A stretch of DNA of 21,710 nucleotides from a virus. The DNA is taken from positions 1 to 21,710 of IMG/VR virus record IMGVR_UViG_3300027854_000014; one strand, 5' to 3'. The position numbers and the translations under genes were made by a program. Below the pieces are notes generated by a model. The model was not told the origin of the DNA and made no database searches. It saw only the letters and a list, made by a program, of their open reading frames with translations. Shown here one piece after another: positions 969 to 20,308 of the stretch (positions are counted from its first letter, which is position 1; each line of letters starts with the position of its first letter).

Positions 969-971
969 TCG

Positions 972-1676
972 CTAGTTTTCTCTACTTATGTGTTTGAAAA
1001 TCCGTTTGACTTGTTCCAAAAACTGATCCACAGGGAGAGCCATTTTCATCCTCTGACAAAGTTTGCAACAAGAAACCACATTTTCCACCACGTAGTCATC
1101 CGAACTATCAACCCTGTCCACTCCACTGTATCTAAACTCAAAGTTCTTTCGTTTTTCCAAGTTCGAAGGAACTAGATTGCAATAATGACAATTCCCCCTC
1201 AGAAGATTGTGGAACTGATCACTCGATAATTCCCAAGACAATCCTCGTTCTGTGGCTTGTTTCTGGTATTGTTTAAGGAGAGATTTTTCTACTTTATCCG
1301 GGGTAGTATTGTATCTCGCCACTCCTCGTAATAATGATCTAGACAAACAGCCACAACTCTGAACACTCCCTGATCGAAGATTCCCACTTCCGACTTCCTT
1401 GTAATTTCCACAAGAGCATTTACACTTCCAATAAGCATCGCCTTTTCGCCGTGTTCGAGAAATCACTTCCAATCTTCCAAAACTTCGTTCCCGTAAGTTT
1501 TCTCCTAATTTCTGAAAAAATTTTGTGTCCGATATTTTCTGCTTTGTATCTTCAGAACGAAGTGCCCCCCGTTGATTTCTCCCTCCCTTTGCAGCCCCTA
1601 AACGTAATCTCTGTTTACTTTCTAGAGTGAAGGTACGAACTCTCTTCGTGATTGGTGGGGCAATTGTTGGATACAA
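972..1676 (-). CDS. HNH-type homing endonuclease with NUMOD3-like and Cys-rich modules
   Basis: A 234-residue protein. Module order: a basic N-terminus with a NUMOD3-like helix (RSEDTKQKIS, 40-49); a Cys-rich module (FGRLEV at 67-71, then KCKCSCGN at 84-91, NLRSG, SCGC at 107-110); and a C-terminal HNH/zinc fold with C163-x2-C166, GVDRVD (185-190) and C204-x2-C207. The D-R-V-D...Y...N-V pattern is typical of phage HNH nucleases that cut DNA and spread their own gene. The only plausible start is TTG at 1676. No ATG or GTG lies between it and the upstream in-frame stop, and AGAGAGG sits about 7 bases upstream as an RBS. The gene lies directly before the tail gene starting at 968 and diverges from the plus-strand gene at 1716. 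A sample line is about 38% GC, lower than nearby structural genes. Activity is not proven by sequence. Confidence 0.85.
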   Translation of the reverse strand: MYPTIAPPITKRVRTFTLESKQRLRLGAAKGGRNQRGALRSEDTKQKISDTKFFQKLGENLRERSFGRLEVISRTRRKGDAYWKCKCSCGNYKEVGSGNLRSGSVQSCGCLSRSLLRGVARYNTTPDKVEKSLLKQYQKQATERGLSWELSSDQFHNLLRGNCHYCNLVPSNLEKRKNFEFRYSGVDRVDSSDDYVVENVVSCCKLCQRMKMALPVDQFLEQVKRIFKHISREN

Positions 1677-1715
1677 AGCGAAAACCTCTCTGACTAAAGG
1701 GAAGAAAGTCTTTAA

Positions 1716-2273
1716 ATGGCGTCATACAACTACTTAAATCAATCTATGGTTGCATCTCAGCTAATAGAGCTGAAAGACGACGATTCTTTCTACAACCCCT
1801 CACTTGGGCACAATGGATTTGCCTGGAACGGACTTTTTTATACGGACGGAGTGCAAGGAGTAGATATCATCGGCTCGCAATCCTTTCAGTATGCCTCTTG
1901 GTTTACCGAGGCCGAAACACCGGGGCCGTACCGGAGCGCACAGGCAAACTTTCCTACTGCCGGCCTGGTCCTGCTATCCAAGGTTGCTCTGACGATCCTG
2001 GACGAATCCACCTATCCGAATTTGACTCTGTGGATGCAATTTCTTCTAGCTGATCTGTACCTTCTTTCGAATAACTTCACGCAAACAAATTCTCAACCAA
2101 GCACTATCGGGTACACTCCGAGTGGACTGGCTTACGCTGACGGTGTGATTTCGGTAATCTACGCTCCCGATGAAGGGGCCGAAAACATCTTGCCTGGGAC
2201 CGGACCCGCTTCTACCATGGTTCTGTCGATTGACTTCGTGCAAGATCAAGCATATCTGGACGTAGCGACCTAA
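1716..2273 (+). CDS. Hypothetical protein upstream of the endolysin
   Basis: A 185-residue protein I do not recognise. There is no signal peptide. A hydrophobic stretch near residues 83-118 (GLVLLSKVALTIL, LWMQFLLADLYLL) looks like buried helices or strands rather than a clear membrane segment. The rest is rich in Gly, Ser, Thr and aromatic residues, as in phage structural or appendage proteins. The start ATG has only a purine-rich GGGAAGAAAG upstream, about 9 bases away. It ends 13 bases before the endolysin start, so the two form a plus-strand pair facing away from the HNH gene. It could be a minor virion protein or a lysis accessory; neither can be chosen from sequence. Confidence 0.65.
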   Translation: MASYNYLNQSMVASQLIELKDDDSFYNPSLGHNGFAWNGLFYTDGVQGVDIIGSQSFQYASWFTEAETPGPYRSAQANFPTAGLVLLSKVALTILDESTYPNLTLWMQFLLADLYLLSNNFTQTNSQPSTIGYTPSGLAYADGVISVIYAPDEGAENILPGTGPASTMVLSIDFVQDQAYLDVAT

Positions 2274-2286
2274 CAAGGAGAAACAA

Positions 2287-2727
2287 ATGCCCAATCCTCC
2301 AATGATTTACTCCCAAACTGGGGAGCATTTAACCCAGCAGTTCGAATCTTGCAAACTCGTTGCTTACCTGGACAGTAAAGGAGTTCCTACGATTGCGTGG
2401 GGGCACACTGCCGGGGTTAAACTCGGGGACACTTGCACGCAAGCTCAGGCTGACGCATGGTTGATGCAAGATATTCAATGGGCAGCCGGAATAGTGAATC
2501 GGGTTGTAACCATTACACTTACGCAGGGAGAGTTCGACGCGCTAACCGATTTCGTCTTTAACGATGGGAGTGGTAACTTCGAATCCAGCACATTGCTCAG
2601 GGATCTAAATGCAGGTAACATACTCGCCGCCGCCGCGCAGTTCCCGCTCTGGGATCATTCCGCTGGGCAAGTAGTCGCCGGATTGCTTCGTCGCCGGTTG
2701 GCTGAAGAACAGGAATTTAACTCTTAG
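2287..2727 (+). CDS. GH24 phage endolysin (lysozyme, T4/P22 type)
   Basis: A 146-residue muramidase expected to hydrolyse the MurNAc-GlcNAc bond of peptidoglycan at the end of infection. The catalytic triad E20, D29, T35 keeps exactly the E-9-D-6-T spacing of T4 lysozyme (E11, D20, T26). Flanking motifs LVAYLD, GVPTIAWGHT and GVKLGDTCT fit the family. FNDGSGNFESSTLLRDLNAG (91-110) and GLLRRRLAEEQEF near the end match the C-terminal lobe. The length is close to other single-domain GH24 endolysins. No signal peptide or SAR segment is seen, so export would need a holin, which is not evident nearby. The RBS AAGGAG lies 7 bases before the ATG, in the short gap after the 185-residue gene. It converges on the 2867-3343 gene. 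Confidence 0.95.
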   Translation: MPNPPMIYSQTGEHLTQQFESCKLVAYLDSKGVPTIAWGHTAGVKLGDTCTQAQADAWLMQDIQWAAGIVNRVVTITLTQGEFDALTDFVFNDGSGNFESSTLLRDLNAGNILAAAAQFPLWDHSAGQVVAGLLRRRLAEEQEFNS

Positions 2728-2814
2728 TGCTAATTGGAGGACAATGGCGATGCATCCATCTTGACGAACTATCGAACTTAAGTACTCAATCAGGTGACTG
2801 GCACACCGGACCAG

Positions 2815-2843
2815 ATCACACACGTCCGCAAACGTGTGTGGAT
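2815..2843. terminator. Hairpin in the convergent junction after the endolysin
   Basis: A perfect 9-bp stem (2817-2825 with 2832-2840) around a 6-base loop, in the 139-base gap between two converging genes. Neither side has a run of T, so it is not a classical intrinsic terminator. It may block read-through in both directions or protect mRNA 3' ends. Confidence 0.5.
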
Positions 2844-2866
2844 AGGATCATTGCCGAGGTATCGTA

Positions 2867-3343
2867 CTAGCTGGCGATCCGGGAAAGACGAGCCTCTTGG
2901 CCATTCTTTATGGTGGCGTATTCTTCCGCTCGTTCCCTCGATTCCGGGCCTGAGAAGATGGTCACGTAGACTTTGCCCTCGTTTTCATAGTCGATTGCTT
3001 CTACTCGCCAATCACCCGGAGTCTGCCTGTCTTCAACAGCGATCCATGTCATAAAAGCTCCTTCCTCTCCACAGGATTCGCATTCTCTGCCATTGGACGT
3101 ACTCGCGTCGTTATGGTTACCATCGCATCCGTCACAATCGTGCGGTTCCGGTGATCCAGGCAACGATTCTGGGCTCGGTGGCTGCTCTAGGTGTTCGGTG
3201 TCCACGTTCTGGGCCTGATTGATACGGGCGAAGAGGTTGAAGGCCAGACCACATTCCTCTGGTGGCAAGCCCGCGCCGGTATGGGAACGAACCACGTGCA
3301 GCAAATAGTCGAACAACTCGTCAGTCAGCAGAATAACCCTCAT
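2867..3343 (-). CDS. Hypothetical Cys-rich acidic protein
   Basis: A 158-residue protein with no recognised family. Residues 1-45 are helical (TDELFDYLLHVV). The middle (50-95) is Pro/Ser-rich and acidic, with two knuckles, C70-x2-C73 and C88-x2-C91, that could bind one zinc. Residues 98-150 look like a small alpha/beta domain (WIAVEDR, GKVYVTIFSGPE). The RBS AAAGGAG is about 12 bases before the ATG, a little far. It follows the lysozyme-like gene by 26 bases on the same strand and is probably co-transcribed with it. An open plus-strand frame over part of it (2794-3054) has no family features and no credible RBS. Function unknown. Confidence 0.65.
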   Translation of the reverse strand: MRVILLTDELFDYLLHVVRSHTGAGLPPEECGLAFNLFARINQAQNVDTEHLEQPPSPESLPGSPEPHDCDGCDGNHNDASTSNGRECESCGEEGAFMTWIAVEDRQTPGDWRVEAIDYENEGKVYVTIFSGPESRERAEEYATIKNGQEARLSRIAS

Positions 3344-3369
3344 GTTGGCTCAATACTCCTTTCCTCCGA

Positions 3370-3813
3370 TCAGATACAAAATTCACGAACTTGGTCACCG
3401 CTGACTTGAGTGTCCGAGAAATACTCATCCAAAGTCGCGGAAGGAGACACCCCAAGTTCTCGAGCGACGATTCTTCCCCAACGGTGATCCCCGGCGTAGG
3501 TCTTAGAGACTTGATCGATAGTCATGTCCAAGCGATAATGCTTAGACTCACCCGAAGCTAATCGCGCGATTTGTTTTCTTAAAGCAGACCAACCTTCGGC
3601 GTCGCTTTTGAAACGGATGTAATGGCCCTTCCGTTTGATGTCGCCGGGGTTATGGAATCGTGTAGGAAGGGTGTTTCTTAGACCGAAACCTTCAGCCTTT
3701 GCGATGGCATGGGCGAAAGCATCGAGCTTGTGTTCATCCATAGTCGAAACTTGGCCGTGGGCAACTACGGTCAAGCACAACGAGATGAGTAAAGCAAAAA
3801 GTGTTTTCGTCAT
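3370..3813 (-). CDS. Exported lysozyme-like peptidoglycan-hydrolase candidate
   Basis: A 147-residue protein. Residues 1-20 form a signal peptide: basic start, hydrophobic LFALLISLCLTVV, then A-H-G before Q21. The mature part has AIAKAEGFG (36-44, candidate catalytic E41), TRFHNPGDIK (51-60) and EGWSALRKQI (73-82). This pattern (A.a.aEGf...n..PtR..NPGdi...F....eGw.AL..qi) is seen in small lysozyme-like or transglycosylase-like proteins of phages and bacteria. The expected product would act on cell-wall glycan after secretion. The RBS AGGGTGA lies about 5 bases before the ATG. The gene starts just beyond the terminator of the tail block, so it probably has its own promoter, which I could not identify. 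Enzyme activity is inferred from motif similarity only. Confidence 0.7.
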   Translation of the reverse strand: MTKTLFALLISLCLTVVAHGQVSTMDEHKLDAFAHAIAKAEGFGLRNTLPTRFHNPGDIKRKGHYIRFKSDAEGWSALRKQIARLASGESKHYRLDMTIDQVSKTYAGDHRWGRIVARELGVSPSATLDEYFSDTQVSGDQVREFCI

Positions 3814-3846
3814 ATATCACCCTACGAGATAGAGTTGAGAATCAGC

Positions 3847-3881
3847 TAAAAACAAACAGCGCGATCCATGTAGAATCGCGC
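3847..3881 (-). terminator. Intrinsic terminator of the tail operon
   Basis: On the minus strand, GCGCGAT pairs with ATCGCGC (7 perfect GC-rich pairs, 3875-3881 with 3859-3865) around a 9-base loop and is followed by TGTTTGTTTTT. It lies 25 bases after the stop of the 970-residue gene and so closes the tail block. Confidence 0.75.
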
Positions 3882-3905
3882 CGTCTTGTTCGTGTTTTGA
3901 ATAGT

Positions 3906-6818
3906 TTAAAAGGTCATGTTAAATCTCGACGGAATGTGAGGCTCCCAAATAAAAGTGTCCGAGGAAATGGCGCGTCCGACGCAAATGATCCACTGGACCG
4001 GTGTGGATCCGCTTATGAGGCTCTCATAGTCCTGGGTCATCTGGCCGTTAGGTCCTACAAAAAGCAATCCACCAACCGTCCAGTTCAATACTGGATTTGT
4101 GGTGATCTGATACCCTCCGCCGTAATATGTGGCGACGGTAGCATTCTCACCACTGACAACATTTGCCAGCACGACTCCATCAGCGAATGGGAAGACCGTA
4201 TTTCCGTCAACTTGCAACACAACGGTCGGGTCTATCGGAATAATGACTGCCGGTGAAACGTTGTACTCGATGTGGACGACCGTCAAAGCTGGGATAACTT
4301 CGCCCGCCGTAAAGGTTTTGGCCACGTCAGTCTGCACAATCGGGATAGACGGGCCGGGAGTAGGTGAGGACTGAATCATCCCGAAATAGCTTTGAGGTAG
4401 GATCTCGGAATCAGAAAGACCATTGTTTACAAACACCTGTACTATGTCACCTGTATTAAAATTACCAGCGAAAGAGAACTGGAGAGGTACGGAATCATCG
4501 TTGGTTGTCAAATCGTAAATCGGATTGCCGTTCTGAGTTACAATCAAAGTCAAGACACCAGGGTTACTTCCTTCGGTCCAATATAGTTCACCAAATCCAG
4601 CGTATGCTCCAGCAGACTGAACAGTGAACGTGGTGTAGGGGAAAGGAGAAGGATCCACATTGCCGGTAACGTCAAACACAATTTGGTCAAACTCAACCGC
4701 CGTGCCGGTTACACCAGCGGGTACGGACGTGGTGGTTGCCGAAGATTCGACTTGAAATCCAACCTGAGCCGCCTGAGCCGCCGCAATAATGTTGTTTGAG
4801 GTTGCAATCTGAGTGGCAATCTCTGCTAGAGTTGCCTGCAACGATGTGTTAAGAGCTGCATATGACAGGTTCAAACGCAGCATCGCCATCTGCACCGTCA
4901 TAGGTTGCTGTTGTATGTCCGGGCGCGAGAGGAAAGCAGTCGGATCAAGAGCATATCCGGGGTTCGTCCAACCACTGTCCGCTACGCTAGGAGCAGCAGC
5001 ACCCGTAACGGTCAGGACCGGAGCCACTGGGATGTTTAACAGCGGGGTACCCGGCGTCCACAAGCGATTCCTCGAAGCCACGTCAGACTTGATGATAGCG
5101 TAATCAGTCGGATCCCCTAGTGGGTCAATAGCGGAGTCTAGAGCGTCCGGGTAGGTCACTACAAAGTCCAACAGGTACGGATCTTGCGCCAAGAGGACTA
5201 TAAGATTGTCGTTGAACTCACGCCAGAATTGCGTGTAACGGTCCACCGCCGTTGCCATGGCAAACGAATTGAAAGTGAAGCGAAATTGCGGGCTGCTAGA
5301 TTGAAACGTAGGATCGTTCGCAATGTTAGCCATTGCTTCAGCAACAACGATGGCCATATTCCCCGCAATCGAAGAAGGGAACGAGCAAGGAGTTGGGAAT
5401 TGTGCGGTACCTTCTCCCAAAATCACCGTGTTTATAGGAGCAAGAACCAAAGTTGTGGGGCGGTAATCCAGGTCAAAGCCAGTGAACCCACTCAAATAAG
5501 AAGGGTCCGCACTAGAATCCCAAGTTGTGTTACGAGTGTACCCCAACAAGGCCGCTTCGATGTAAGAAAGTCGCCATAGGAGATTCGCCAAAACAGAAGG
5601 AGCCATCTGCGTCAAAGTAGCTATCAAAGGAATGGAAGGCGGGGCGTCTACCACCGTGCCGGTAGCAGCATTCCAAGGCACCGGAGTTTGCTGGAGATAG
5701 GCCACTGATGGAACTATGAAGCTGGTGTAAACTACCTGAAAATTTGGTATCCAGACCCCGCCGCGCCCGGTGCGCGTAGAGTTCAAATAGAGAAGCCATT
5801 CGGCTGTAAGATTCGGATCATAGTTCGAAGCTACAATCTGTCCCAAGTTGCAGTTTGCGATCAGAGAAGCTCGAAGCGCAGCTTGCCGAGCGGTGAGATT
5901 GGGATTGCCATAATCAGGGTCGGAAGGTTCAATCACATTGCCCCGCGTAGCTGGAACAATAGACACAACGTTGTCTTGGTACATCTGAGGAGGCAGAGCG
6001 TAGTTGTTTATGATTGTGCTAGGATCCGGGAGACTTCCAAGCATGGAAGAATTCGGGTTAAAATTGTCACTCAGATCCGCTCCCGGCAATGGCTCTTGCG
6101 AAAGAGTTACAAAAGTGTTTCCACTGTACTGCACAACCTGTGCCGGGATATTGGTGCCGAGGACTCCCAATGCGATTAGGTCAGACAGAACTGAGTTTAC
6201 AATAGTACATTGACTAAACGAAAAGTTGAGTTTGAACTTAGGCACTGTGGTAAGAATCTTTAAGAAAGAAGACAAAGGCGAGAAATTAAAGCCATTCCAG
6301 TGAAAGAAGCCGTCAAGCAGCTGTGGTAGAGAAGGGATCCGGGGTAATCCCCAGTTGCATACACTGTTCAACAGATTGGCTACAGCGTTCAAGTTTGCTT
6401 GAACCATCTGAATCAGGTTCTGTTCCATGGTCGTAAGGATGGTGATGTTCTTTAAGACCGTCGCTATCAGCAGCGTACCTTCTTTTTGAAACTTTTGAAC
6501 CTGTTGGATGATGGTGATGGCGTCTGCGATGTACTTCGGCTTACGAATGGCTGTAGGAAACTCGCCATCCGTCGCTAACAGGTGCATCTTCAACCAAGTT
6601 TGCACCCTGGACTGAAAAACTAAAATTTTCTGCTGAAGTACGTGCTGGGCATCCGAGATGCTCTTCTCTAGTTTCCGGCCATCTTCCAACGCCTTGTGAT
6701 AGAACTGCTCAACTTCTGGGTCCCCAAGAACGTTGAATTGATTAATCTTGCCCTGGACTTTGATGGGCCAGAGATCCGCAGGGCTGGTGGGAGACAAAGG
6801 TCCTATTAGTGTGGGCAT
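3906..6818 (-). CDS. Large tail/baseplate structural protein, family unknown
   Basis: A 970-residue protein. Residues about 30-170 are strongly helical with heptad-like Leu/Ile/Val spacing (LEKSISDAQHVLQQKILVF), suggesting a coiled-coil base. The long middle part is rich in Asn, Pro, Thr and aromatic residues and gave no family match. Residues about 830-970 are beta-rich, with FTAGEVIPALTVVH, GLLFVGPNGQMT and ICVGRAISSDTF. This resembles small beta domains repeated at the ends of phage tail and decoration proteins. The start overlaps the stop of the spike gene by one base (TAATG), implying translational coupling, and the gene is last in the operon before the terminator. Order after hub and spike suggests a baseplate wedge, arm or adhesin; this is inference. 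Confidence 0.8.
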   Translation of the reverse strand: MPTLIGPLSPTSPADLWPIKVQGKINQFNVLGDPEVEQFYHKALEDGRKLEKSISDAQHVLQQKILVFQSRVQTWLKMHLLATDGEFPTAIRKPKYIADAITIIQQVQKFQKEGTLLIATVLKNITILTTMEQNLIQMVQANLNAVANLLNSVCNWGLPRIPSLPQLLDGFFHWNGFNFSPLSSFLKILTTVPKFKLNFSFSQCTIVNSVLSDLIALGVLGTNIPAQVVQYSGNTFVTLSQEPLPGADLSDNFNPNSSMLGSLPDPSTIINNYALPPQMYQDNVVSIVPATRGNVIEPSDPDYGNPNLTARQAALRASLIANCNLGQIVASNYDPNLTAEWLLYLNSTRTGRGGVWIPNFQVVYTSFIVPSVAYLQQTPVPWNAATGTVVDAPPSIPLIATLTQMAPSVLANLLWRLSYIEAALLGYTRNTTWDSSADPSYLSGFTGFDLDYRPTTLVLAPINTVILGEGTAQFPTPCSFPSSIAGNMAIVVAEAMANIANDPTFQSSSPQFRFTFNSFAMATAVDRYTQFWREFNDNLIVLLAQDPYLLDFVVTYPDALDSAIDPLGDPTDYAIIKSDVASRNRLWTPGTPLLNIPVAPVLTVTGAAAPSVADSGWTNPGYALDPTAFLSRPDIQQQPMTVQMAMLRLNLSYAALNTSLQATLAEIATQIATSNNIIAAAQAAQVGFQVESSATTTSVPAGVTGTAVEFDQIVFDVTGNVDPSPFPYTTFTVQSAGAYAGFGELYWTEGSNPGVLTLIVTQNGNPIYDLTTNDDSVPLQFSFAGNFNTGDIVQVFVNNGLSDSEILPQSYFGMIQSSPTPGPSIPIVQTDVAKTFTAGEVIPALTVVHIEYNVSPAVIIPIDPTVVLQVDGNTVFPFADGVVLANVVSGENATVATYYGGGYQITTNPVLNWTVGGLLFVGPNGQMTQDYESLISGSTPVQWIICVGRAISSDTFIWEPHIPSRFNMTF

Positions 6819-9217: not shown

Positions 9218-9219
9218 AA

Positions 9220-12054: not shown

Positions 12055-13191
12055 TTAATTTGGTCTCACAAATATTGATGTAGATGAAAGAGGGTTGTAA
12101 ATGTCCTGGGTAGGTGATTGATCCATAGAACTTGTATTAGAAGACACACAATTCATGGTTACATATTCGTACGCATTGGTGGCTGAAGCCACAGTAGGAG
12201 CTGCGCTACCAGAAGAGGGTAGACTCGCTATTGAAGGTGAAACTCCCGGCGAAGAAGCAGTTTGTCCCGGCGCATACCCGGCTGCCGGCTGACCCGGTGT
12301 TATTGCCGATGGCGAAGATTCAGCTTGCGTCTGCTGTTGATCGTAGGCCCGATAGATCCCATATGTGTGCCCTCGTTCTACCTCGTTGTGGATGCTATCC
12401 AGCCAGGGGGAATCAGGACGGAAACGTTCTTTCCATGCTATAAACGTGATAGTGAAATTAGCCAAAAATGGTTTTTCTGCATCCTGGGAAACTGTCAAAT
12501 TATCAAACATGCCTGACCAGAAAAAATTCCCAACAACCAGCTCAACGTCTTGGTGCATTTTGATGCGACGACGCGTGAAATCTGGAGTAGACAACGGCCC
12601 TTCTCCTAGCTCCTCTCCTTCAAACCAATAGCCGTTGTTCTCGTATACCATCACCAACTGAGTTAGATTCCGGTACGACTCGGAGAACGGTTGGTAAGCA
12701 TCTGTGAGACCCGCTGAAAAATATTGCCCCGCCGTTTGCCCGCTAAGTGAGATCTGAACCATGTCTTCACCCCAGACACCGAACTGCCAACCCTCACGAG
12801 TCAGAGATTGAGCATCCACCGTTGTACGTGTAACAGACATAGTTGCTGGATTCACAAGGAAAGAAAAGATTCCAGCTTCAGCAGGATATGGATTTCCGTT
12901 CGCAAGTCCTCGATGCGGGATACGGATCTGTATGTATTCATAGAGATTTAAGGCCGTCCGATCATCAGGAGAAATACGGAAATCTTCGGTTTGTATTTCA
13001 GGAGCAGTGCTCGGAGGCCGCCCCGTCTTTTGGGCGTTGGCGATAGATTGATTTTGAAGAGAGGTAAGATTCTGATAGTTTGGTATGAAACGCTTCTCGC
13101 CACGGATGGGCAACTGCAAAGGTGAGATGCCAGCGTTCGCTGGAGTTGTCAGCGCAATTTCACTGAAATCGTTTTGGTTCTGACTGGCCAT
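12055..13191 (-). CDS. Baseplate/tail-tip protein, paralogue of the 13791-15146 C-terminal domain
   Basis: A 378-residue protein. The core, about 108-260, carries FLVNPATMSVTRTT, REGWQFGVWGEDM (132-144), SLSGQTAG, then WSGMFDNLTVSQDAEKPF (225-242) and FTITFIAWKER (246-256). The same layout occurs in the C-terminal half of the upstream transglycosylase fusion, so the two are duplicated and diverged. Residues 285-350 are a Gln/Ser/Pro/Ala-rich flexible tail. The hub follows directly (TAAATG). Its start lies immediately after the HNH stop, and the RBS AAAGGAAA is inside the last codons of the HNH gene. I infer a ring component joining the tube end to the hub. A LysM-type baseplate protein such as gp53 is an alternative, but no clear LysM motif was seen. 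Confidence 0.7.
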   Translation of the reverse strand: MASQNQNDFSEIALTTPANAGISPLQLPIRGEKRFIPNYQNLTSLQNQSIANAQKTGRPPSTAPEIQTEDFRISPDDRTALNLYEYIQIRIPHRGLANGNPYPAEAGIFSFLVNPATMSVTRTTVDAQSLTREGWQFGVWGEDMVQISLSGQTAGQYFSAGLTDAYQPFSESYRNLTQLVMVYENNGYWFEGEELGEGPLSTPDFTRRRIKMHQDVELVVGNFFWSGMFDNLTVSQDAEKPFLANFTITFIAWKERFRPDSPWLDSIHNEVERGHTYGIYRAYDQQQTQAESSPSAITPGQPAAGYAPGQTASSPGVSPSIASLPSSGSAAPTVASATNAYEYVTMNCVSSNTSSMDQSPTQDIYNPLSSTSIFVRPN

Positions 13192-13194
13192 TTA
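13187..13194. repeat. 8-bp repeat at the start of the baseplate gene and the HNH gene
   Basis: GCCATTTA recurs at 13763-13770 and also at the start of the transglycosylase fusion (15143-15149 region). Because TAAATG junctions are common in this operon, part of this match is expected. Confidence 0.25.
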
Positions 13195-13767
13195 TGAAAG
13201 TTTCCTTTCTAGGGCACCAATCAACAATTTCAATTCTTCTAGTGAAGCGTTACTTTTCATGGTATTTGCCTTTTTGGATATGATCCAGAAATTATCCTTG
13301 GTATACCCACCTTCATTTCTTATTCTGTCTACAGTAGGACTATTTTCTTTTCCACCTCTTAATCCCATTGCTTTTACTAATGGGATGTCCAACACAGGGC
13401 ATTTGCTCGGTATCAAAATGTCATCCATAGTGAGTTCAAAAGGGATCCCCTTACGCTTCGCTCTCCATCGTGCCGAATTGAAAAGCACAAATTCTAACGT
13501 TTTACTTTTCCCGTGTGTTGTGTGACTTAACGACATTTTTCGTTTTGCTTCTTCAGAACGAGTTTTCCCCAAATTAGAGATAGCGCGGGTACATCCACAA
13601 CTTTTAGTGCCGTTTGTTGCTCCTAAGTTGTCACCGTTTATCACTTTAGTGGTTCCGCAATCGCAAACACAAAGCCAGAGCAGGATGCCCCGCTCATTCT
13701 TTCCTTGTAAAGACCTGGCCACTAATTTTCCGTATCTCTTATCTGTTCTATCAACAAAAGTTGCCAT
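13192..13767 (-). CDS. HNH-like homing endonuclease with Cys-rich and NUMOD3-like modules
   Basis: A 191-residue protein. Residues 11-59 form a Cys-rich module (RYGKLVARS, then C33-x-C35-x-C37-G, GDNL, SCGC at 56-59). A NUMOD3-like helix follows (RSEEAKRKMS, 70-79). The nuclease core has C-P-V-L-D-I-P-L (123-130), SPTVDRI (143-149) and GYTKDNFWIISKKANTMKS (154-172), a well-known phage HNH variant in which D.D/DRI and N..K replace the plain HNH. The RBS AAGGTGA lies about 9 bases before the ATG. The gene sits between the two baseplate paralogues, 23 bases after one and abutting the other. Two sample lines are 33-35% GC against about 50% in one line of the upstream gene, which supports recent arrival. 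It shares its modules, in a different order, with the HNH gene at 972-1676. Confidence 0.88.
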   Translation of the reverse strand: MATFVDRTDKRYGKLVARSLQGKNERGILLWLCVCDCGTTKVINGDNLGATNGTKSCGCTRAISNLGKTRSEEAKRKMSLSHTTHGKSKTLEFVLFNSARWRAKRKGIPFELTMDDILIPSKCPVLDIPLVKAMGLRGGKENSPTVDRIRNEGGYTKDNFWIISKKANTMKSNASLEELKLLIGALERKLS

Positions 13768-13790
13768 TTAAAGAATCACCTTCTCGTACA

Positions 13791-15146
13791 TTATACTGAT
13801 ACTCCCACTGGGGGTAACTCTAGTAAAGTGATAGTTCTTTCTATTTGAAAAACAAAATTGAAATGCCATTGATATGGATCTTTGGCATCTTGGGACCATG
13901 AAAGTGATTTGAAGTAGCCTAAAAAAGTGCTATCTTTCAAAGTCATAGCGATAGACCCGCGAGCAAACACATCGTTGTTTCTGCTGTGTCCTTGTTGACT
14001 GCTGACGCCTAACGTTGGAGACCAAGCCGAAATCCCGTCCATTTGATCCCCGGAAAGAGATCCAGTGCTGTTGTCCGTACGAAACCAAATGTTACCGTTG
14101 TTTTTGAACAAAGAGAGAAGTTCCACAAAGGCATCTTGGGCTGCTACCCGGAAGGAACTCGTGCTTCCTGAAGCCATTGGGCTTCCCTCAGCGTTGCTCA
14201 CCAAAACATCCCCGGCTGCGTCAGTCTCCAAAGCCCAGAACCCTTTGTTTAGGACCGCAATGAGATCCGTGCTTGTCTGTGCAGTGCTCAAGAAATCTGT
14301 TAACCCCAGCTGGTTCATGAAGACACCGGTGGTGCACGTACCTTCTATCATATCAGCTTGCATCCCCCACATAGTGACATGCCATCCCGTTCGCCCTTGC
14401 TGCTTGTTGTAAACGTGTTTGGAGGTCTTCTGGAAACTCTTTACCGAAGCGTTTAGTTGCACTTGGATAGGTTGCCCATGCGCTGTTCCATCCGCAGCAG
14501 ACTGGTTACACAATGCCACTCCTTCCTTGTTCTTTAGGATCATGACGAAAGAAACCGGAGTGACGAAGGAGCGAGCACGCTTGTTACCCGTGACTAAATT
14601 GGTATCTTGATACCATGGCGTGTTATCCAGATTTGTCGTGATGACAATGCCTGGAATGATGGCTTGCATCGCGGCTGGCGATACCTGAAGATTAGGCAAC
14701 GAGATAAAATTGGAGGGCACGTCACCCATGTCACCACCCAAAGCCGGATTAGTAGGGGTACTGAGAGTGCTGGCCGGATTACTTTGACTCACAGCTAAAA
14801 AATCAAGATAATTCTGATTTCCATACGCGCCCCACGCAGGACTAAAACTTCCACCTTCAGCTTGCCAAATTTGATAAGCTTCATTGAAGTTGGCCTGAGG
14901 ATCCAGGAAATTACTCAAATCCCCGTGTGCACCGTTGATTTGCATAAGTCCAACCGATCCCCCATGGGGATCATTCGGGTTGAAGTTATTCGGGATTCCG
15001 TCACTTTCTGCTTGTGCCACCGCCGCCGCTTGCTGCACAGCCACTCCCCGAAAGCCTGCAGCGTAAGCGAACTGCTGTAACTCTTGGTTACTGTACGCAG
15101 GTAACGGAACTGCGCCTGAAGGAAAAGTGATGATTGTGTTTGCCAT
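13791..15146 (-). CDS. Tail-associated lytic transglycosylase fused to a baseplate domain
   Basis: A 451-residue two-part protein. Residues about 18-115 form an SLT/GH23-like domain: AAAVAQAESDG with candidate catalytic E47, then GGSVGLMQIN (62-71) and YQIWQAEGGSFSPAW (91-105). This domain would cleave peptidoglycan glycan strands locally during DNA injection. After a Ser/Thr/Pro linker (120-145), residues about 195-440 hold a beta-rich domain with RTGWHVTMWGMQADM (252-266), GTCTTGVF and LGYFKSLSWSQDAKDPYQW (409-427). That domain parallels the 378-residue protein downstream. The start abuts the tape-measure stop (TAAATG), with AAGGAAG about 8 bases upstream inside that gene. An enzyme carried on a structural baseplate part makes sense next to the tape measure. 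Confidence 0.85.
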   Translation of the reverse strand: MANTIITFPSGAVPLPAYSNQELQQFAYAAGFRGVAVQQAAAVAQAESDGIPNNFNPNDPHGGSVGLMQINGAHGDLSNFLDPQANFNEAYQIWQAEGGSFSPAWGAYGNQNYLDFLAVSQSNPASTLSTPTNPALGGDMGDVPSNFISLPNLQVSPAAMQAIIPGIVITTNLDNTPWYQDTNLVTGNKRARSFVTPVSFVMILKNKEGVALCNQSAADGTAHGQPIQVQLNASVKSFQKTSKHVYNKQQGRTGWHVTMWGMQADMIEGTCTTGVFMNQLGLTDFLSTAQTSTDLIAVLNKGFWALETDAAGDVLVSNAEGSPMASGSTSSFRVAAQDAFVELLSLFKNNGNIWFRTDNSTGSLSGDQMDGISAWSPTLGVSSQQGHSRNNDVFARGSIAMTLKDSTFLGYFKSLSWSQDAKDPYQWHFNFVFQIERTITLLELPPVGVSV

Positions 15147-18100
15147 TTAGAAGACTTCCTTCCGTGAAGGACGTACAACTCCTACATGACTTTCGTTCGC
15201 TGAATTAGTCGGGAGCTGTTCTACCGGCGTAGAATGTTGGACATCAACTCCAATATTAGTGGTAGTGATGTGGTAAGTTTTACCCCCCACCACTACCTGA
15301 TCTGAAGCCGCTTGCAAAGCTGCTGTTGCTGATACAGCACCCGCTCCTGGAGTCACTGGCATCCAAGGGGGTTGTGCAGCCACACCAGGTAAGGTAGGAG
15401 TTTCGGCAGCAGAAGTGTCGGGAAAATCAGGGTTGCCGTAATTAGCTCCAAATCCCGGTGGCTTCTTTGCCGTGCCCCATGTGGTTGTCAGGAAATCTGC
15501 TATCTTAGTGACTGCTTCGATAAGCAAAAGGAAGCCACGCGCTAGTGCATCCTCCATTCTGTCCCCTGTTGTGAGAGTTGCTTTTGAAATATCCTCCGCC
15601 ATTTTATCAATATCCGATTGAGGAGGCGCGGTTAACTTATCGAATGCTTTTACAACTCCTGTATTGCTTAAAGCGTAACGCAACATATCCGGGTCGGTTT
15701 CCATGGCCTTCCGAAGTTCAGGACCCTTGAGGATATCTCCTGCAATGTCAGATACCGTTGAACGCATGTAATCCAACGAGGGTTTTGCTACTGCCGGGGT
15801 TAACTTGTTTTCTACAGCAAGCTCGAATGCCTTCTTGATAGTGTCTTCATTGAATTCTTCGGGGTGTTCTACCAAAGCCTTTCCAGTGGCTCCGGCTAAC
15901 AAGGAAAGAAGTCGTTGTAGTTGATCCGATACTGCCTTTGGATCTACACCAAGCTGCTGAGCTATAGACGCTGTCAATGCAGTAGTCGCATTTCCCTTAG
16001 CAACATCATCCAAAGTTTCATTGCTCGCCTTTAAGGTTGCAAAAATTCCTGCCATGTTAGTGGACTGTTTTGTGGTTGCATTACCCAACAATTTTGTCGC
16101 TTGGGCATAATCCAAGAAAGACTCTTTGCCAGTAGCAAATTTTTCAGCGTGTTCAGCCATCTCCATCTGACGTCGCAGATCTTCCAGCGCACCAAGAGCT
16201 GTTTTAGCATCTAGGCTTTCGGCTACCCGTTGACCTTTAGCGTCGAGACGAGTGTCGGAATTCAATTTTTGAATTGCCAATCGTACATCATCTACAGTTT
16301 TCAAAGAGCCTGCATCTAATCCTATTTCGGTCATCGCCCCGCCAGCCACAGTACGCTGCACTGCCACGCCAGCCTGCAAATCTTGAGCCATTTGGGTTTT
16401 CTGCTGTTTGCCCATCTGAGCATACAGAAAAGCTGTCTGTTCCAAAGATTTCTCAGGGCCGCCGATCAAAACTCCCATAGCCTCTTTCAGATCGTCATAC
16501 GAAGCAACCCCCGTACTGCTCAGCACTCTCAGGATACCAGTTACAGTATTAACAGATTTTCCCATCCGATCAAATTGAGAAGTAATTTCGTCAATAAGCC
16601 CGAGATACTTCGTGGTGGTAATGCCCGACGTCTTTATATCCTGTGTGAATTTATTGAAAAGAAGTTTGACCGATTCCTGACTTTGCTTAAACGTCAGAAG
16701 ATACTTAGCCGCCTCCGCCGCGCCCGCGCCCGGTTCCAGCCCTAACACCCTGCCTTCTATGTACCCTCTGGCTTGAACACCACCAATTGCCTTCGCTCCC
16801 CCGGCTAGTATCCCCGAATGTTCTCGTGCCTGTTGAAACATCAGCTCTGGCATCGAAACACCCAAATCTTCGATAGCTTGAACGATCTTGAGATTATCTT
16901 CTTTCCTAACACCCAAAGCACTGACAAAATCAGAGGTTAAATTCTGTTGAGCGGCCAACAACCTTTTTTCCGCGCTTGGCCCTGCCCCTGTGAACAATCC
17001 AGCTGTACCAAGAGTCTTGGCGAACTCTCTGTTGTTTTCAATGGCCATGTCGACCAACTTGCGTACTCCTTCCAAGAGTGCCAAAGGAACCGCTGCTGCG
17101 CCGACAACGCCCGTCACTTCCTCACCCGCGCCCGCGATACCTCCTAAAGCGCGCATCCCTATGCCAGTTCCAGCTCGTCCTCCTCCTGCTTCTAAAGTTG
17201 CGAGAGCCTGTTTGCCAAGAAATCCTCCTATCCCACCTTTCTCTGCACCGCCCGCTGTTCTTTCCAACAGACGATCCATAACTCCACCCAGCCCAGTTCT
17301 TCCTGATATTGGACCGGCAGCTCTGCCCTCAGGCGTAGCACGGAACGCGGGTATTCCTTTCTCCTCTATTCCGTATTTCTTGGCAAAATCAGCTTTAAGC
17401 TGCCCAAAACTTTTCGACCCTTCTTTTTGAACTTGCCGTCGCCAATTTCCAAGTTCGGTAGAAATTGCCCCGGCCTTCGCGAATTTTTCGAACATCCCGG
17501 ATCCCATGATTTTTGCCAGCTGTTGGATCCCGGTCGAAATCTTTCCTCCCCGGCCCAAGGAAGTTCCGAATTTGGACGCTTCGGACGTGGCCTGACGAAC
17601 ATTTTTAGCTATCTCCAGGAAGACATCGGGATCGATTTCCTGATTTGCGTCAGCTACTCCCTTCATGCTATCTTCCAGTTTTTCCAGCGCCCGCCCGGTA
17701 TGGGTGATAGCTTGTTGGAGTTTCCTGTTTTCTTCAACGTCGAAAATGCTGCCGGATTCTTGAAGTTTCTTTTGGGCTTTATACAGTTCGTCCAGGTACT
17801 TCTTAACTTCAGCATAGGATTTCTTACTCATACCAGCAAAACCCTGTGTGGCAAATTTCTTATTGATAGCGAGTACGTCTTTCAATGCATCTTTAACATC
17901 ATCAGTAGCATCCACAGCGTACTTGAGTTGTTCACGCCACTTCTCGAAGGTCTTTTCTACAATTTCAGCGGGTCTTTGAAGCGAACTTAGAGTGGAAGCG
18001 ACCTTCAAAAGATCGGCTGAGACTGATTGCATGGCATCAGCCATTTTCTGAACTTCTGGGTTTACAGAAGATGGAGTGCCGGTCCCGCTTTGGCTAAAGT

Positions 18101-18176
18101 TGTTCTCAGGTAACGCGGAACCACCGTATGACTTTACCGGGTCGTTTCCACCAGGGTTGTTGGGATCATCAGGCAT
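15147..18176 (-). CDS. Tail tape-measure-like protein
   Basis: A 1009-residue protein. Residues 1-40 are Pro/Gly/Asn-rich. Residues about 40-205 are nearly all helical and charged (VEKTFEKWREQLK, LDELYKAQKKLQE), as in coiled coils. Residues about 290-375 are Gly/Ala-rich and hydrophobic (GIGGFLGKQALATLEAGGG, GVVGAAAVPLALLEGV), like the membrane-interacting part of tape measures. The following 600 residues are again mostly helical, and the end is a short Pro/Ala-rich tail. Length, composition and position before the baseplate genes fit a tape measure, which sets tail length and enters the cell at injection. No peptidase or lysozyme motif was seen. No strong RBS precedes the ATG at 18176, which follows a 99-base divergent gap shared with the plus-strand membrane gene. 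Confidence 0.75.
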   Translation of the reverse strand: MPDDPNNPGGNDPVKSYGGSALPENNFSQSGTGTPSSVNPEVQKMADAMQSVSADLLKVASTLSSLQRPAEIVEKTFEKWREQLKYAVDATDDVKDALKDVLAINKKFATQGFAGMSKKSYAEVKKYLDELYKAQKKLQESGSIFDVEENRKLQQAITHTGRALEKLEDSMKGVADANQEIDPDVFLEIAKNVRQATSEASKFGTSLGRGGKISTGIQQLAKIMGSGMFEKFAKAGAISTELGNWRRQVQKEGSKSFGQLKADFAKKYGIEEKGIPAFRATPEGRAAGPISGRTGLGGVMDRLLERTAGGAEKGGIGGFLGKQALATLEAGGGRAGTGIGMRALGGIAGAGEEVTGVVGAAAVPLALLEGVRKLVDMAIENNREFAKTLGTAGLFTGAGPSAEKRLLAAQQNLTSDFVSALGVRKEDNLKIVQAIEDLGVSMPELMFQQAREHSGILAGGAKAIGGVQARGYIEGRVLGLEPGAGAAEAAKYLLTFKQSQESVKLLFNKFTQDIKTSGITTTKYLGLIDEITSQFDRMGKSVNTVTGILRVLSSTGVASYDDLKEAMGVLIGGPEKSLEQTAFLYAQMGKQQKTQMAQDLQAGVAVQRTVAGGAMTEIGLDAGSLKTVDDVRLAIQKLNSDTRLDAKGQRVAESLDAKTALGALEDLRRQMEMAEHAEKFATGKESFLDYAQATKLLGNATTKQSTNMAGIFATLKASNETLDDVAKGNATTALTASIAQQLGVDPKAVSDQLQRLLSLLAGATGKALVEHPEEFNEDTIKKAFELAVENKLTPAVAKPSLDYMRSTVSDIAGDILKGPELRKAMETDPDMLRYALSNTGVVKAFDKLTAPPQSDIDKMAEDISKATLTTGDRMEDALARGFLLLIEAVTKIADFLTTTWGTAKKPPGFGANYGNPDFPDTSAAETPTLPGVAAQPPWMPVTPGAGAVSATAALQAASDQVVVGGKTYHITTTNIGVDVQHSTPVEQLPTNSANESHVGVVRPSRKEVF

Positions 18177-18250
18177 AGCTTAGGCTCAAACTCAATTCAG
18201 AAACTTTATCTTCACCGAATCACTAGCTGTTTGGTTAAGTTCTTCCGTAG

Positions 18251-18267
18251 TATAAAGTGGAGAGAGG
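18251..18267 (+). promoter_or_regulatory. Possible -10 element and RBS of the membrane-protein gene
   Basis: TATAAA at 18251-18256 resembles a sigma-70 -10 box, but the hexamer 17 bases upstream (TGTTTG) is a poor -35. GAGAGG at 18262-18267, 8 bases before the ATG at 18276, is a convincing RBS and decides the start of that gene. The complementary strand reads TATACT over the same bases, so the site could also serve the tape-measure direction. Confidence 0.35.
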
Positions 18268-18275
18268 TGCATCGT

Positions 18276-18749
18276 ATGGAATACCAAGGAACAAAAGAAG
18301 AGCTGGGAGTATTGATGGTCGGTGAAGCTGCGGGCACAGCGGCCCGGTTTGCCGCTGATTTTGCCTTCGCTCGATTCATTTTGTTCCCAACCATTCTAGT
18401 AATTCTATTCATTTTGGGCCTTATCTTTGGATCCGTGTGGGCTGGAGCGGGCATAGTTCTCCTGGTCGTTGGTTGTGTGATCTGGATCCTTTGGGCTCTC
18501 TGTTCAAGTTTGTACCGTGCATTCGCGGGTTCTCCGGACCAAATTTTGAATAAATTCCTTTACAGTTTGCCTTCCGGCTCACGGGATGCGTACTACGAGA
18601 TTTTGTGGGAACAACGCGAAAGCCACCAAGCTGATATTATAGCGCAACACGTTGAACAGATCAAAAGAAATCCGGAAAAATTCCGGGAAGAGATAGGACC
18701 AATGCTTGAACCTCGCTTGGCAAAGGCACGACGTATGATGGTATGCTAA
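18276..18749 (+). CDS. Two-helix membrane protein of unknown function
   Basis: A 157-residue protein. I start it at the ATG at 18276, which has GAGAGG 8 bases upstream, rather than at an in-frame TTG at 18231. Two membrane helices are clear: residues 34-53 (FILFPTILVILFILGLIFGS) and 57-80 (GAGIVLLVVGCVIWILWALC). About 75 soluble helical residues follow, rich in Glu, Gln and Lys. A short soluble N-terminus with AAGTAARFAADFAFAR precedes them. The gene is the only plus-strand gene between the putative chaperone and the tape measure. It could be a moron changing the host envelope, a superinfection-exclusion protein or an unusual holin. For a class II holin it is long, and it is far from the endolysin. 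Function not recognised. Confidence 0.75.
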   Translation: MEYQGTKEELGVLMVGEAAGTAARFAADFAFARFILFPTILVILFILGLIFGSVWAGAGIVLLVVGCVIWILWALCSSLYRAFAGSPDQILNKFLYSLPSGSRDAYYEILWEQRESHQADIIAQHVEQIKRNPEKFREEIGPMLEPRLAKARRMMVC

Positions 18750-18760
18750 AAATGGACCGA

Positions 18761-18784
18761 TTACTCTTCCCGACGGAAGAATAG
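18761..18784. terminator. Hairpin in the convergent junction 18750-18785
   Basis: Stem 18765-18770 (TCTTCC) with 18775-18780 (GGAAGA), loop CGAC, extended by two further pairs after one mismatch. It lies between two converging genes. On the plus strand it is followed by ATAGTTTAAG, only weakly T-rich. Confidence 0.45.
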
Positions 18785-18785
18785 T

Positions 18786-19427
18786 TTAAGCCGCTGGAGC
18801 AAGAGCTTCAGGGACTTCTTTGAAGATATCCGCAACGGTTTCCCGAATTTGGGTTTTGGTGGCGTCTTCGATCTCCATAAGCGCATTTGCCATGAACCGT
18901 TTCTCAACCTCGGTCTGAGTAGCCGAGTCGGGGAATTTGGACAGCAGACGATCTTCTACCCGCTGGCAATGGGTCATGTAGACTTTCCACAACACCCCGA
19001 CCAACTCCTCTCCCCACCCCGTGATTACGTTGCGAAGCACAACTTGGATGTCCTTCTGCACGTTGTCTTTGGGATCTGTTACAATACGTTGAACACCCGC
19101 GAGCGTGCGAAGACTAAGCCCCGGCCCATCCCCTATCGCAATCCAGGATACGGCTCGCGAAAGGATCTCACACTTGACCCTTTGAGTCCAAGCATAGCCC
19201 TTCTGGCCTTCTACTGCCATCAAAGCTACCATTTCATCTTCAGTTGTGATGTTGGAAATCCGGAGTCGAATCTTCCGATTTGCTGATTCTAGAGTCAGGA
19301 TCTCTTCGAAATCCTCTATACCCATCCCAACCAACCCTGCGATCACTTCCTCTACGGATTGAGGAACAGCGACCTCTTTTTCCCCTATGGTATTTAGTTC
19401 ATCCTGGGCAAGTGTTGTATCTTTCAT
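18786..19427 (-). CDS. Putative tail assembly chaperone or other virion-assembly protein
   Basis: A 213-residue protein, no clear family. I start it at the ATG at 19427 because AAGGAG lies 6 bases upstream; an in-frame ATG at 19448 lies inside the GIY-YIG gene and lacks this support. The protein is acidic and mostly helical. It has a short beta segment (RKIRLRISNITTEDEMVALM) followed by a helical region ending in WIAIGDGPGLSL. This 'modified core, then idG' layout resembles chaperones that coat tape measures in tailed phages, and the next minus-strand gene downstream is the tape measure. I found no -1 frameshift extension: the next downstream gene is on the other strand. The C-terminus ends in Ala/Pro. 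Role is inferred mostly from position. Confidence 0.6.
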   Translation of the reverse strand: MKDTTLAQDELNTIGEKEVAVPQSVEEVIAGLVGMGIEDFEEILTLESANRKIRLRISNITTEDEMVALMAVEGQKGYAWTQRVKCEILSRAVSWIAIGDGPGLSLRTLAGVQRIVTDPKDNVQKDIQVVLRNVITGWGEELVGVLWKVYMTHCQRVEDRLLSKFPDSATQTEVEKRFMANALMEIEDATKTQIRETVADIFKEVPEALAPAA

Positions 19428-19428
19428 G
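19419..19428. repeat. Direct repeat copy A flanking the GIY-YIG gene
   Basis: ATCTTTCATG on the plus strand (CATGAAAGAT on the minus), identical to 20011-20020. It contains the start codon of the 213-residue gene. The two copies are 592 bases apart and bracket the endonuclease gene. Confidence 0.6.
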
Positions 19429-20019
19429 TTAGACTCCTTGGAGCGCAATTTGACGCTTCTCTTCGTTGTATTTCTTCAGTTTCTGTCGTATAACCGCTTT
19501 GGTCTCTTCGGAATGTGGAACTTTATGACTACCAGGTGGTGGTTTAATACCTAACCGGAGCATTGCAGTACTCATATTTTGAAGAGCTTCGGGAGTGGGG
19601 ACGTGCCCTAAATGGGCATCAACCATATTCTGGATACTTTCTTCAGAGTACACTCGATTCCGGTTGGCATCTCCTATCTTGACCTTTGTCTCTTCGGCAT
19701 GATGAAACCCAGATGTCCCATCGCCACCTTCAGTGAGGTTCCACCCGAATTCTGGGTTCGTTGCTTGATACTCCCTTATGTATCGAATTTCTAGAAGATT
19801 CAAATCCTCTTCAGAGTCAGCTGAAGCCAGAATTACCACCTGGAAATTCTTAAACCCATACTTAAGAATTGCCCGATGAACTGGAAATTGGCTACCATCC
19901 TTAGCCCAATACCAATGCTGTTGTAGGCGTTTTCTAAGAGCTTTGGTGGTTTTTCCAACATACACTTTTCGACCATAAGAAAGCAAGTATACGACCATAC
20001 AAGCTAACGGATCTTTCAT
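19429..20019 (-). CDS. GIY-YIG homing endonuclease with NUMOD3-like repeats
   Basis: A 196-residue protein. The GIY-YIG domain spans about 8-100: VVYLL (9-13) stands for GIY, KVYVGKT (18-24) for YIG, with conserved R31, H35, the catalytic Glu in LLEIRYI (E77) and GWNLTEGGDG (92-101). Behind it are about four NUMOD3-like helices at roughly 105-190 (HAEETKVKIGDANR, YSEESIQNM, PTPEALQNM, HSEETKAVIR) that bind target DNA. The start is uncertain: ATG at 20019 has no good RBS, and ATG at 19998 (residue 8) lacks one too. The TAA stop leaves one base before the 213-residue gene, whose AAGGAG lies inside the last codons here. A sample line is about 42% GC. Such genes are mobile and are not needed for virion building. 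Confidence 0.9.
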   Translation of the reverse strand: MKDPLACMVVYLLSYGRKVYVGKTTKALRKRLQQHWYWAKDGSQFPVHRAILKYGFKNFQVVILASADSEEDLNLLEIRYIREYQATNPEFGWNLTEGGDGTSGFHHAEETKVKIGDANRNRVYSEESIQNMVDAHLGHVPTPEALQNMSTAMLRLGIKPPPGSHKVPHSEETKAVIRQKLKKYNEEKRQIALQGV

Positions 20020-20110: not shown

Positions 20111-20308
20111 ATGGAAGACCGGGACTACACCTTCTTCGGATTGGCAGTGACGCAGACCGAATTCGCTGCTTTGCTACGTTCAGTTGTTCAAGACCATAAA
20201 TGCCCGTTCTGTGGGAAACCTGCTTTCGTTCGAGTCGGGGTGATTTCCCACGCCAAGAAATGCAAACTTATCCCAAAGAAATACATTTTCCACGAAATTG
20301 CTTGGTAG
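20111..20308 (+). CDS. Small C2HC zinc-finger-like protein
   Basis: A 65-residue protein. Residues 30-51 carry C30-P-F-C33-G, then H47-x3-C51 (HAKKC), a spacing able to bind one zinc. The first half is helical and acidic (TQTEFAALLRSVV). The reading frame fills the gap between two minus-strand genes, and its stop lies inside a perfect hairpin. The RBS is weak (GAGTAG about 10 bases upstream); TAGAAT at 20100-20105 could be a -10 box but sits only 5 bases from the ATG. It may be a small nucleic-acid-binding or adaptor protein, or a moron. No family was recognised. Confidence 0.6.
   Translation: MEDRDYTFFGLAVTQTEFAALLRSVVQDHKCPFCGKPAFVRVGVISHAKKCKLIPKKYIFHEIAW

What the first reader, a model, noticed from the sequence alone, without database searches (positions are those of the whole stretch)
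972..20019. Three homing endonucleases each placed immediately before a structural gene
The HNH at 972-1676, HNH at 13192-13767 and GIY-YIG at 19429-20019 end 3, 0 and 1 bases before the start codons of the fibre-like, baseplate and putative chaperone genes. In at least two cases the RBS of the structural gene lies inside the endonuclease 3' end. The structural genes would therefore depend on endonuclease sequence for translation, which would tie the mobile gene to essential tail genes. Precise 5'-junction insertion by two nuclease types suggests a shared selection.
Basis: partly seen in the sequence, partly recalled or inferred. Interest (0 to 1): 0.7.

Follow-up and report, generated by a model that had tools for sequence, protein, structure and literature searches.

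The report
Nuclease genes docked at start codons
In a family of giant soil phages, selfish DNA-cutting genes tend to sit exactly against the start codon of a conserved phage gene, with the ribosome's landing site inside the intruder's own tail end, which may make the intruders harder to lose cleanly.

Summary
The window is a fragment of a jumbo phage related to the acidobacterial phage Tunturi_5. Three free-standing nuclease genes (two HNH from different lineages, one GIY-YIG) stop 3, 0 and 1 bases before the tail-fibre, virion-structural ("baseplate") and tail-assembly-chaperone genes. Tunturi_5 is empty at all three sites. The window alone proves little: 4 of 9 of its other co-directional gaps are equally short.

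Relatives make the pattern significant. With start codons placed by conservation, 45 of 73 nuclease genes end within -8..+4 bases of the next start codon, against 139 of 515 ordinary gene pairs (p=1e-8), and 23 of 38 inserted nucleases against 21 of 83 other inserted genes. The 5' side shows no such excess. In an occupied/empty pair about 95-96% identical, homology resumes exactly at the start codon in two HNH insertions, and the old leader and ribosome-binding site are gone. Nuclease 3' ends carry better-than-chance Shine-Dalgarno sites.

Corrections: the GIY-YIG's RBS looks ancestral, HNH1's is weak, and preference for structural genes is not significant (p=0.10). The fibre site has been occupied repeatedly; in at least 11 relatives it holds a nuclease-less double Cys4-domain ORF. 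Verdict: new variant of a known kind.

The parts
972..1676 (-). HNH1: HNH nuclease gene (234 aa, TTG start) with N-terminal Cys4 (zinc-ribbon-like) domain at aa 61-113 and HNH domain at aa 124-230; stops 3 bases before the fibre ATG
   Evidence: AlphaFold model matches PacI (Foldseek prob 1.00, E 4.6e-3) and the Gme HNH nickase
2..968 (-). tail fibre gene, N-terminal 322 aa (runs off the window); homologue of Tunturi_5 gp247
   Evidence: 46% identity to PP885688.1 gp247
966..985 (-). HNH1/fibre junction GTAGAGAAAACTAGCGAATG: weak SD-like AGAGAA inside HNH1, HNH1 stop TAG, fibre ATG
   Evidence: predicted anti-SD pairing -2.9, empty L016 -3.6, Tunturi_5 -5.6
1677..1715 (.). divergent leader between HNH1 and the plus-strand gene 1716-2273; in relatives without HNH1 the equivalent leader (about 42-90 bp) is directly upstream of the fibre gene
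1716..2273 (+). divergent neighbour of the fibre gene (185 aa), conserved next to the fibre gene in essentially all relatives with enough flank
13192..13767 (-). HNH2: HNH nuclease gene (191 aa) with Cys4 domain at aa 8-62 and HNH domain at aa 87-190, of another HNH clade than HNH1; absent in L002 and Tunturi_5
13189..13211 (-). HNH2/structural junction AGAAAGGAAACTTTCATAAATG: SD-like AAAGGAAA inside HNH2, stop TAA, ATG; the TAAATGGC junction also occurs in nuclease-free Tunturi_5
   Evidence: predicted pairing -4.9 vs 0 in empty L002 and -3.8 in Tunturi_5
13791..15146 (-). upstream tail lysozyme gene (SLT_3), homologue of gp256; its C-terminal tail is about 37 aa shorter than in the empty allele L002 but of similar length in Tunturi_5
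19429..20019 (-). GIY-YIG nuclease gene (196 aa) with NUMOD3
18786..19427 (-). tail assembly chaperone gene, homologue of gp258
   Evidence: 47.6% identity, annotation
19425..19442 (-). GIY/chaperone junction CCAAGGAGTCTAACATG: SD AAGGAG encodes the last residues of the GIY-YIG ORF; same motif at the empty site of L003 (CAAGGAGTGTTTATG)
   Evidence: pairing -7.5, same in L003

Best explanation
The three genes are free-standing nuclease genes (homing-endonuclease type) that entered separately into gene junctions of a jumbo acidobacterial-type phage. In this clade such genes persist mostly when their 3' end lies flush with the start codon of the next conserved gene: the insertion replaces or absorbs that gene's leader, the last codons of the nuclease double as the next gene's Shine-Dalgarno site, and stop and start codons touch or overlap (TAATG, ATGA, TAAATG). 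Shown here: patchy presence, independent origins, flush 3' junctions above several controls, homology resuming at the start codon in close pairs, SD signal in nuclease 3' ends above chance. Inferred: that a functioning ribosome-binding site in the nuclease tail is what let these insertions survive next to needed genes, and that it makes clean loss of the nuclease costly.
For: Empty alleles: Tunturi_5 at all three sites, L002 for HNH2, L016-L018 for HNH1, L003/L004/L007/L008/L011/L012 for the GIY-YIG. Separate origins: HNH1 and HNH2 fall in different supported HNH clades, the third is GIY-YIG. Flush junctions: 45/73 vs 139/515, p=1.1e-8, robust to gap caps and window choice; one vote per gene family 48% vs 21%, p=0.002, and matched families 49% vs 22%, p=0.004; other inserted genes 21/83 vs nucleases 23/38, p=0.0004, with no difference on the 5' side (12/38 vs 27/83). 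Close pair about 95-96% identical, L046 vs L048: homology begins exactly at the ATG for the fibre-site and g2867-site HNH genes, and the old leader is gone. SD: -6.2 mean at flush nuclease junctions vs -2.8 inside nuclease ORFs (p=2e-14), and -5.8 vs -4.5 in nuclease-free copies of the same gene families (17 families, p=0.03).
Against: A first, cruder gene caller showed only 38% vs 28%, so the effect depends on accurate start codons. About 40% of insertions are not flush (e.g. +18, +31, +127, -20). The GIY-YIG case in the window keeps an ancestral-looking RBS and HNH1 has a weak one. No homing, cleavage or translation was measured. Events at one site are not all independent.
Confidence: 0.62

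Rival explanations
1. Ordinary gene packing: phage late operons are compact, insertions survive only at junctions, so any inserted gene ends near the next start codon.
For: 4 of 9 other co-directional gaps in the window are equally short; many empty junctions are themselves -1 to +3. With gaps capped at 50 and a -10..+10 window the excess is only OR 1.9, p=0.03.
Against: The same genes without a nuclease are flush in 22% against 49%; other inserted genes are flush in 25% against 61%; the excess is on the 3' side only.
Confidence: 0.22
2. The nucleases are passengers: blocks containing nuclease plus leader were exchanged by homologous recombination between phages, and start codons are just where conserved coding sequence (and so recombination) begins.
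For: In L046 vs L048 the fibre-site block includes about 156 bp of the neighbouring gene's 5' end; for the L047 GIY-YIG and L084 HNH the first 16-60 bases of the downstream gene also differ. Published work places nuclease genes at boundaries of exchange (PMC10448857).
Against: Explains transfer, not why the donor arrangement is flush in so many unrelated nuclease/gene combinations; other inserted genes would be moved the same way and are not flush.
Confidence: 0.12
3. The nuclease genes are old, vertically inherited members of these operons, regulators rather than mobile elements.
For: The fibre site is occupied in 18 of 30 distinct alleles, and in 11 of them by a nuclease-less double Cys4-domain ORF; dN/dS 0.11-0.20 among three related ones.
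Against: HNH2 and the GIY-YIG are found at their sites only in this virus; the GIY-YIG site otherwise holds other nucleases (L013 HNH, G017 GIY) or none. HNH1's sister allele L016 is empty; occupancy of the fibre site changes at least 4-5 times; fibre-site HNH domains are not one clade.
Confidence: 0.04

Closest known systems
Free-standing homing endonucleases of T4-like phages (seg GIY-YIG and mob HNH genes; PMC2988022)
   Same: Intergenic GIY-YIG and HNH genes next to conserved phage genes, patchy among relatives, some with overlapping stop/start codons (T4 mobE start overlaps the nrdA stop, UAAUGA, with translational coupling suggested).
   Different: In the review the overlap and coupling discussed is between the nuclease start and the UPSTREAM gene, and the concern is displaced promoters. 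Here the regular feature is the nuclease stop flush with the DOWNSTREAM start codon, with the downstream SD in the nuclease 3' end.
HEG clustering near essential genes and 'HEG islands' (Barth et al. 2023, PMC10448857)
   Same: Nuclease genes concentrated near virion and replication genes, at boundaries of exchanged DNA.
   Different: A search of that text for 'start codon' and 'overlap' found neither; junction-level placement was not what it analysed.
CapR of PLE satellites, a capsid-expression repressor derived from the DNA-binding domain of T5orf172 nucleases (discussed in PMC10448857)
   Same: A nuclease-less DNA-binding domain of nuclease origin kept for another role; compare the double Cys4-domain ORFs before the fibre gene.
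   Different: CapR is satellite-encoded and of another domain family; no function is known for the fibre-site ORFs.
PacI-type HNH nucleases
   Same: Best structural match of the HNH1 model.
   Different: PacI is a restriction enzyme; only the fold and approximate domain layout are shared.

Membership tests
HNH nuclease (HNH1, HNH2) | HNH-family sequence or fold | tested here: met
   PHROG HNH/endonuclease VII hits to 2.6e-16 (HNH1) and 8.8e-32 (HNH2); HNH1 model matches PacI and the Gme HNH nickase. No Pfam HNH model passes for either.
HNH nuclease (HNH1, HNH2) | Intact catalytic motif | tested here: inconclusive
   In alignment A2 both keep D187/R188, Y195 and N199, but HNH1 departs from the subfamily consensus DRxDNxxGY (DRVDSSDDY) and CN (CQ); HNH1 may be impaired.
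GIY-YIG nuclease | GIY-YIG domain above the curated cut-off | tested here: met
   PF01541 30.6 bits vs 22.6, plus NUMOD3 27.5 vs 20.4.
Free-standing homing endonuclease | Own ORF between genes, not within an intron or intein | tested here: met
   Intergenic in all three cases; no Rfam family (group I intron included) matches the window.
Free-standing homing endonuclease | Presence/absence polymorphism with empty alleles | tested here: met
Free-standing homing endonuclease | Cuts the empty allele and converts it in crosses | not testable with these tools
   Needs biochemistry or phage crosses; co-conversion-like tracts next to inserts were seen in L046/L047.
HEG island | Two or more nucleases bracketing cargo exchanged between otherwise dissimilar phages | not tested
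   Three nucleases bracket tail genes in the window, but exchange of the whole block was not examined.

The most novel reading that the evidence does not exclude
Start codons of conserved genes act as docking points: the nuclease's recognition site straddles leader and start codon, so insertion exactly there both destroys the site (self-immunity, as for intron endonucleases) and installs a new ribosome-binding site encoded by the nuclease's last codons, so that the nuclease cannot be deleted cleanly. At the fibre gene the end point of this process is a nuclease-less, Cys4-domain protein retained as leader and possibly regulator.
Probability: 0.2. Interest if true: 0.75.

Novelty: new variant of a known kind. 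Interest (0 to 1): 0.52.

Why it matters
How selfish nucleases survive next to genes a phage cannot do without is usually explained by cutting specificity and by avoiding harm. If the nuclease's own 3' end becomes the ribosome-binding site of the next gene, precise loss is penalised, which would help explain persistence of nuclease genes and of their nuclease-less remnants in virion operons. The pattern gives a simple rule testable in any phage family (3' gap and SD in the nuclease tail), and supplies natural occupied/empty pairs for doing so. Tunturi_5, a cultured relative empty at all three sites, makes an experiment possible.

Tried and rejected
A crude codon-usage gene caller over 18 records gave only 38% vs 28% flush 3' gaps and was set aside because its start codons were unreliable; the conservation-based starts replaced it. 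An automated choice of start codons in pairwise comparisons picked internal starts in several cases; those rows were not used, the alignments were read instead. Looking for close relatives of the GIY-YIG site with the chaperone, the GIY-YIG and the upstream gene as queries found only the same virus in another sample, so that junction is compared only with relatives about 50% identical. Searches for close relatives of HNH1 and HNH2 gave only distant hits. Megablast against cultured phages gave nothing; only protein searches found Tunturi_5. The structure of the nuclease-less double-domain protein matched nothing convincingly in the PDB. Preference for structural genes was tested and is not significant. 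Truncation of the lysozyme tail by HNH2 was considered; L002 has a longer tail but Tunturi_5 a similar one, so it cannot be polarised. No intron RNA was found.
Full report
What the window is. It is an IMG/VR virus record of 21,710 bases. Gene order and sequence match the tail region of Tunturiibacter phage Tunturi_5 (PP885688.1, 308,711 bp, a jumbo myovirus of Acidobacteriota; PMC11924767): tail fibre gp247, virion structural gp255, lytic tail protein gp256, tape measure gp257, tail assembly chaperone gp258. The same virus was found in another sample (L001, 100% identical over the HNH2 and GIY-YIG junctions). Relatives at 76-86% (L002/L016/L018) and about 45-58% protein identity were fetched, and large parts of about 20 contigs were read.

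The observation. The three nuclease ORFs, their strand and their distances of 3, 0 and 1 bases to the next start codon are as described. HNH1 and HNH2 carry an N-terminal four-cysteine domain and an HNH domain; the third is GIY-YIG with NUMOD3. They are unrelated insertions: the two HNH domains sit in different supported clades.

Is it more than chance? Within the window, no: 4 of 9 other co-directional gaps are within -8..+4. I therefore asked whether nucleases in the clade behave differently from other genes. Start codons were assigned by conservation between records, stops are exact, and 73 nuclease-to-gene and 515 gene-to-gene junctions resulted. Flush junctions (-8..+4): 62% against 27% (p=1.1e-8); without the fibre site 30/57 (p=0.0002); one vote per downstream gene family 48% against 21% (p=0.002), and in 31 families seen both with and without a nuclease 49% against 22% (p=0.004). 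Genes other than nucleases inserted between otherwise adjacent genes are flush in 21 of 83 against 23 of 38 for nucleases (p=0.0004), while the 5' side does not differ. Capping gaps weakens but does not remove the effect. My first attempt with a cruder caller did not see it clearly.

Breakpoints in empty alleles. The cleanest case is a pair about 95-96% identical in flanking DNA. L046/L047 carry four nucleases that L048/L049 lack. For the HNH before the fibre gene and the HNH before the g2867 homologue, homology resumes exactly at the ATG and the whole old leader, including its SD-like sequence, is replaced (for the fibre site together with about 156 bp of the divergent neighbour). A GIY-YIG overlaps the next start (ATGA) and the first 60 bases of that gene differ as well, as expected of a conversion tract. 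A fourth lies tail-to-tail with its neighbour. In the window, HNH1 against L016 resumes at the ATG and HNH2 against L002 within one base of it. For the GIY-YIG only distant empties exist; they carry the same SD (CAAGGAGT in L003), so this ORF most likely ends by reading through the chaperone's own RBS. In some other insertions sequence just before the start is also shared with the empty allele (L116, L120), so replacement and capture of the old leader both occur.

Ribosome-binding sites. Predicted pairing with the 16S tail at flush nuclease junctions averages -6.2 kcal/mol, against -2.8 at random positions inside nuclease ORFs (p=2e-14) and -5.1 at flush gene-gene junctions; in 17 matched families -5.8 against -4.5 (p=0.03). 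In the window the values are -2.9 (fibre), -4.9 (structural; 0 in L002, -3.8 in Tunturi_5) and -7.5 (chaperone; same in the empty L003). The anti-SD used is the standard bacterial tail; the host's own was not checked.

The fibre site over time. Of 30 distinct alleles, 12 are empty, 7 hold an HNH nuclease and 11 a short ORF with two four-cysteine domains and no nuclease domain, nearly all ending within -1..+3 of the fibre start. On the fibre tree the occupancy changed at least 4-5 times, and the window's closest relative L016 is empty. The nuclease-less ORFs share sequence including the linker KMEKRxSLVN, and where divergence could be measured dN/dS is 0.11-0.20 (three related pairs). So they are kept as proteins, at least in that group. 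The chaperone site was likewise hit more than once: GIY-YIG in the window and in G017, an HNH in L013.

Targets. Most nuclease-preceded genes are virion genes by Tunturi_5 homology (portal, baseplate, fibre, connector, tail), but exonuclease, SbcD, phosphoribosyltransferase and ATPase genes are hit too, and the preference over other conserved genes is not significant (18/30 vs 17/45 families, p=0.10).

Known and new. Free-standing nucleases next to conserved genes, and at boundaries of exchange, are known (PMC2988022, PMC10448857, PMC7344957). In the texts I could search I found no report that they end flush with the downstream start codon and carry its SD; the library holds open-access papers only, so this is not proof of novelty.

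Limits. Contigs are metagenomic. Junctions at one site share history. Gene and start assignment is my own. Nothing about cleavage, homing or translation was measured; dependence of the tail genes on nuclease sequence remains an inference from anatomy.

Noticed in passing
L019, L022, L025, L027, L030, L032, L034, L042, L044, L051, L053, directly before the fibre gene: A nuclease-less ORF with two four-cysteine domains (alignment A1) sits against the fibre start codon in at least 11 relatives; dN/dS 0.11-0.20 in one group. Possibly a domesticated nuclease-derived DNA-binding protein.
   Followed up: partly
L046/L047 versus L048/L049: Two phages about 95-96% identical in flanking DNA differ by four nuclease genes within about 8 kb (three HNH, one GIY-YIG), a natural system for studying nuclease gain.
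   Followed up: partly
L110:2896-3618: Downstream of this GIY-YIG gene the conserved start codon of the tail-terminator homologue seems lost; the reading frame now starts inside the nuclease ORF (about -52), so the nuclease may supply start codon as well as RBS.
   Followed up: no
window 20111-20308 (+): Small plus-strand ORF (65 aa) with a zinc-finger-like CPFCGKP...HAKKC motif between the GIY-YIG gene and gene 20322-21383; present in L001 only.
   Followed up: no
window 18455-18785: 331-base gap without a clear gene between the chaperone gene and ORF 18212-18454, in an otherwise compact operon.
   Followed up: no
divergent leader, window 1677-1715 and equivalents: Leaders between the fibre gene and its divergent neighbour share a GACTTT..CCCTA(C/T).. 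element in many empty relatives and Tunturi_5, perhaps a shared promoter.
   Followed up: no
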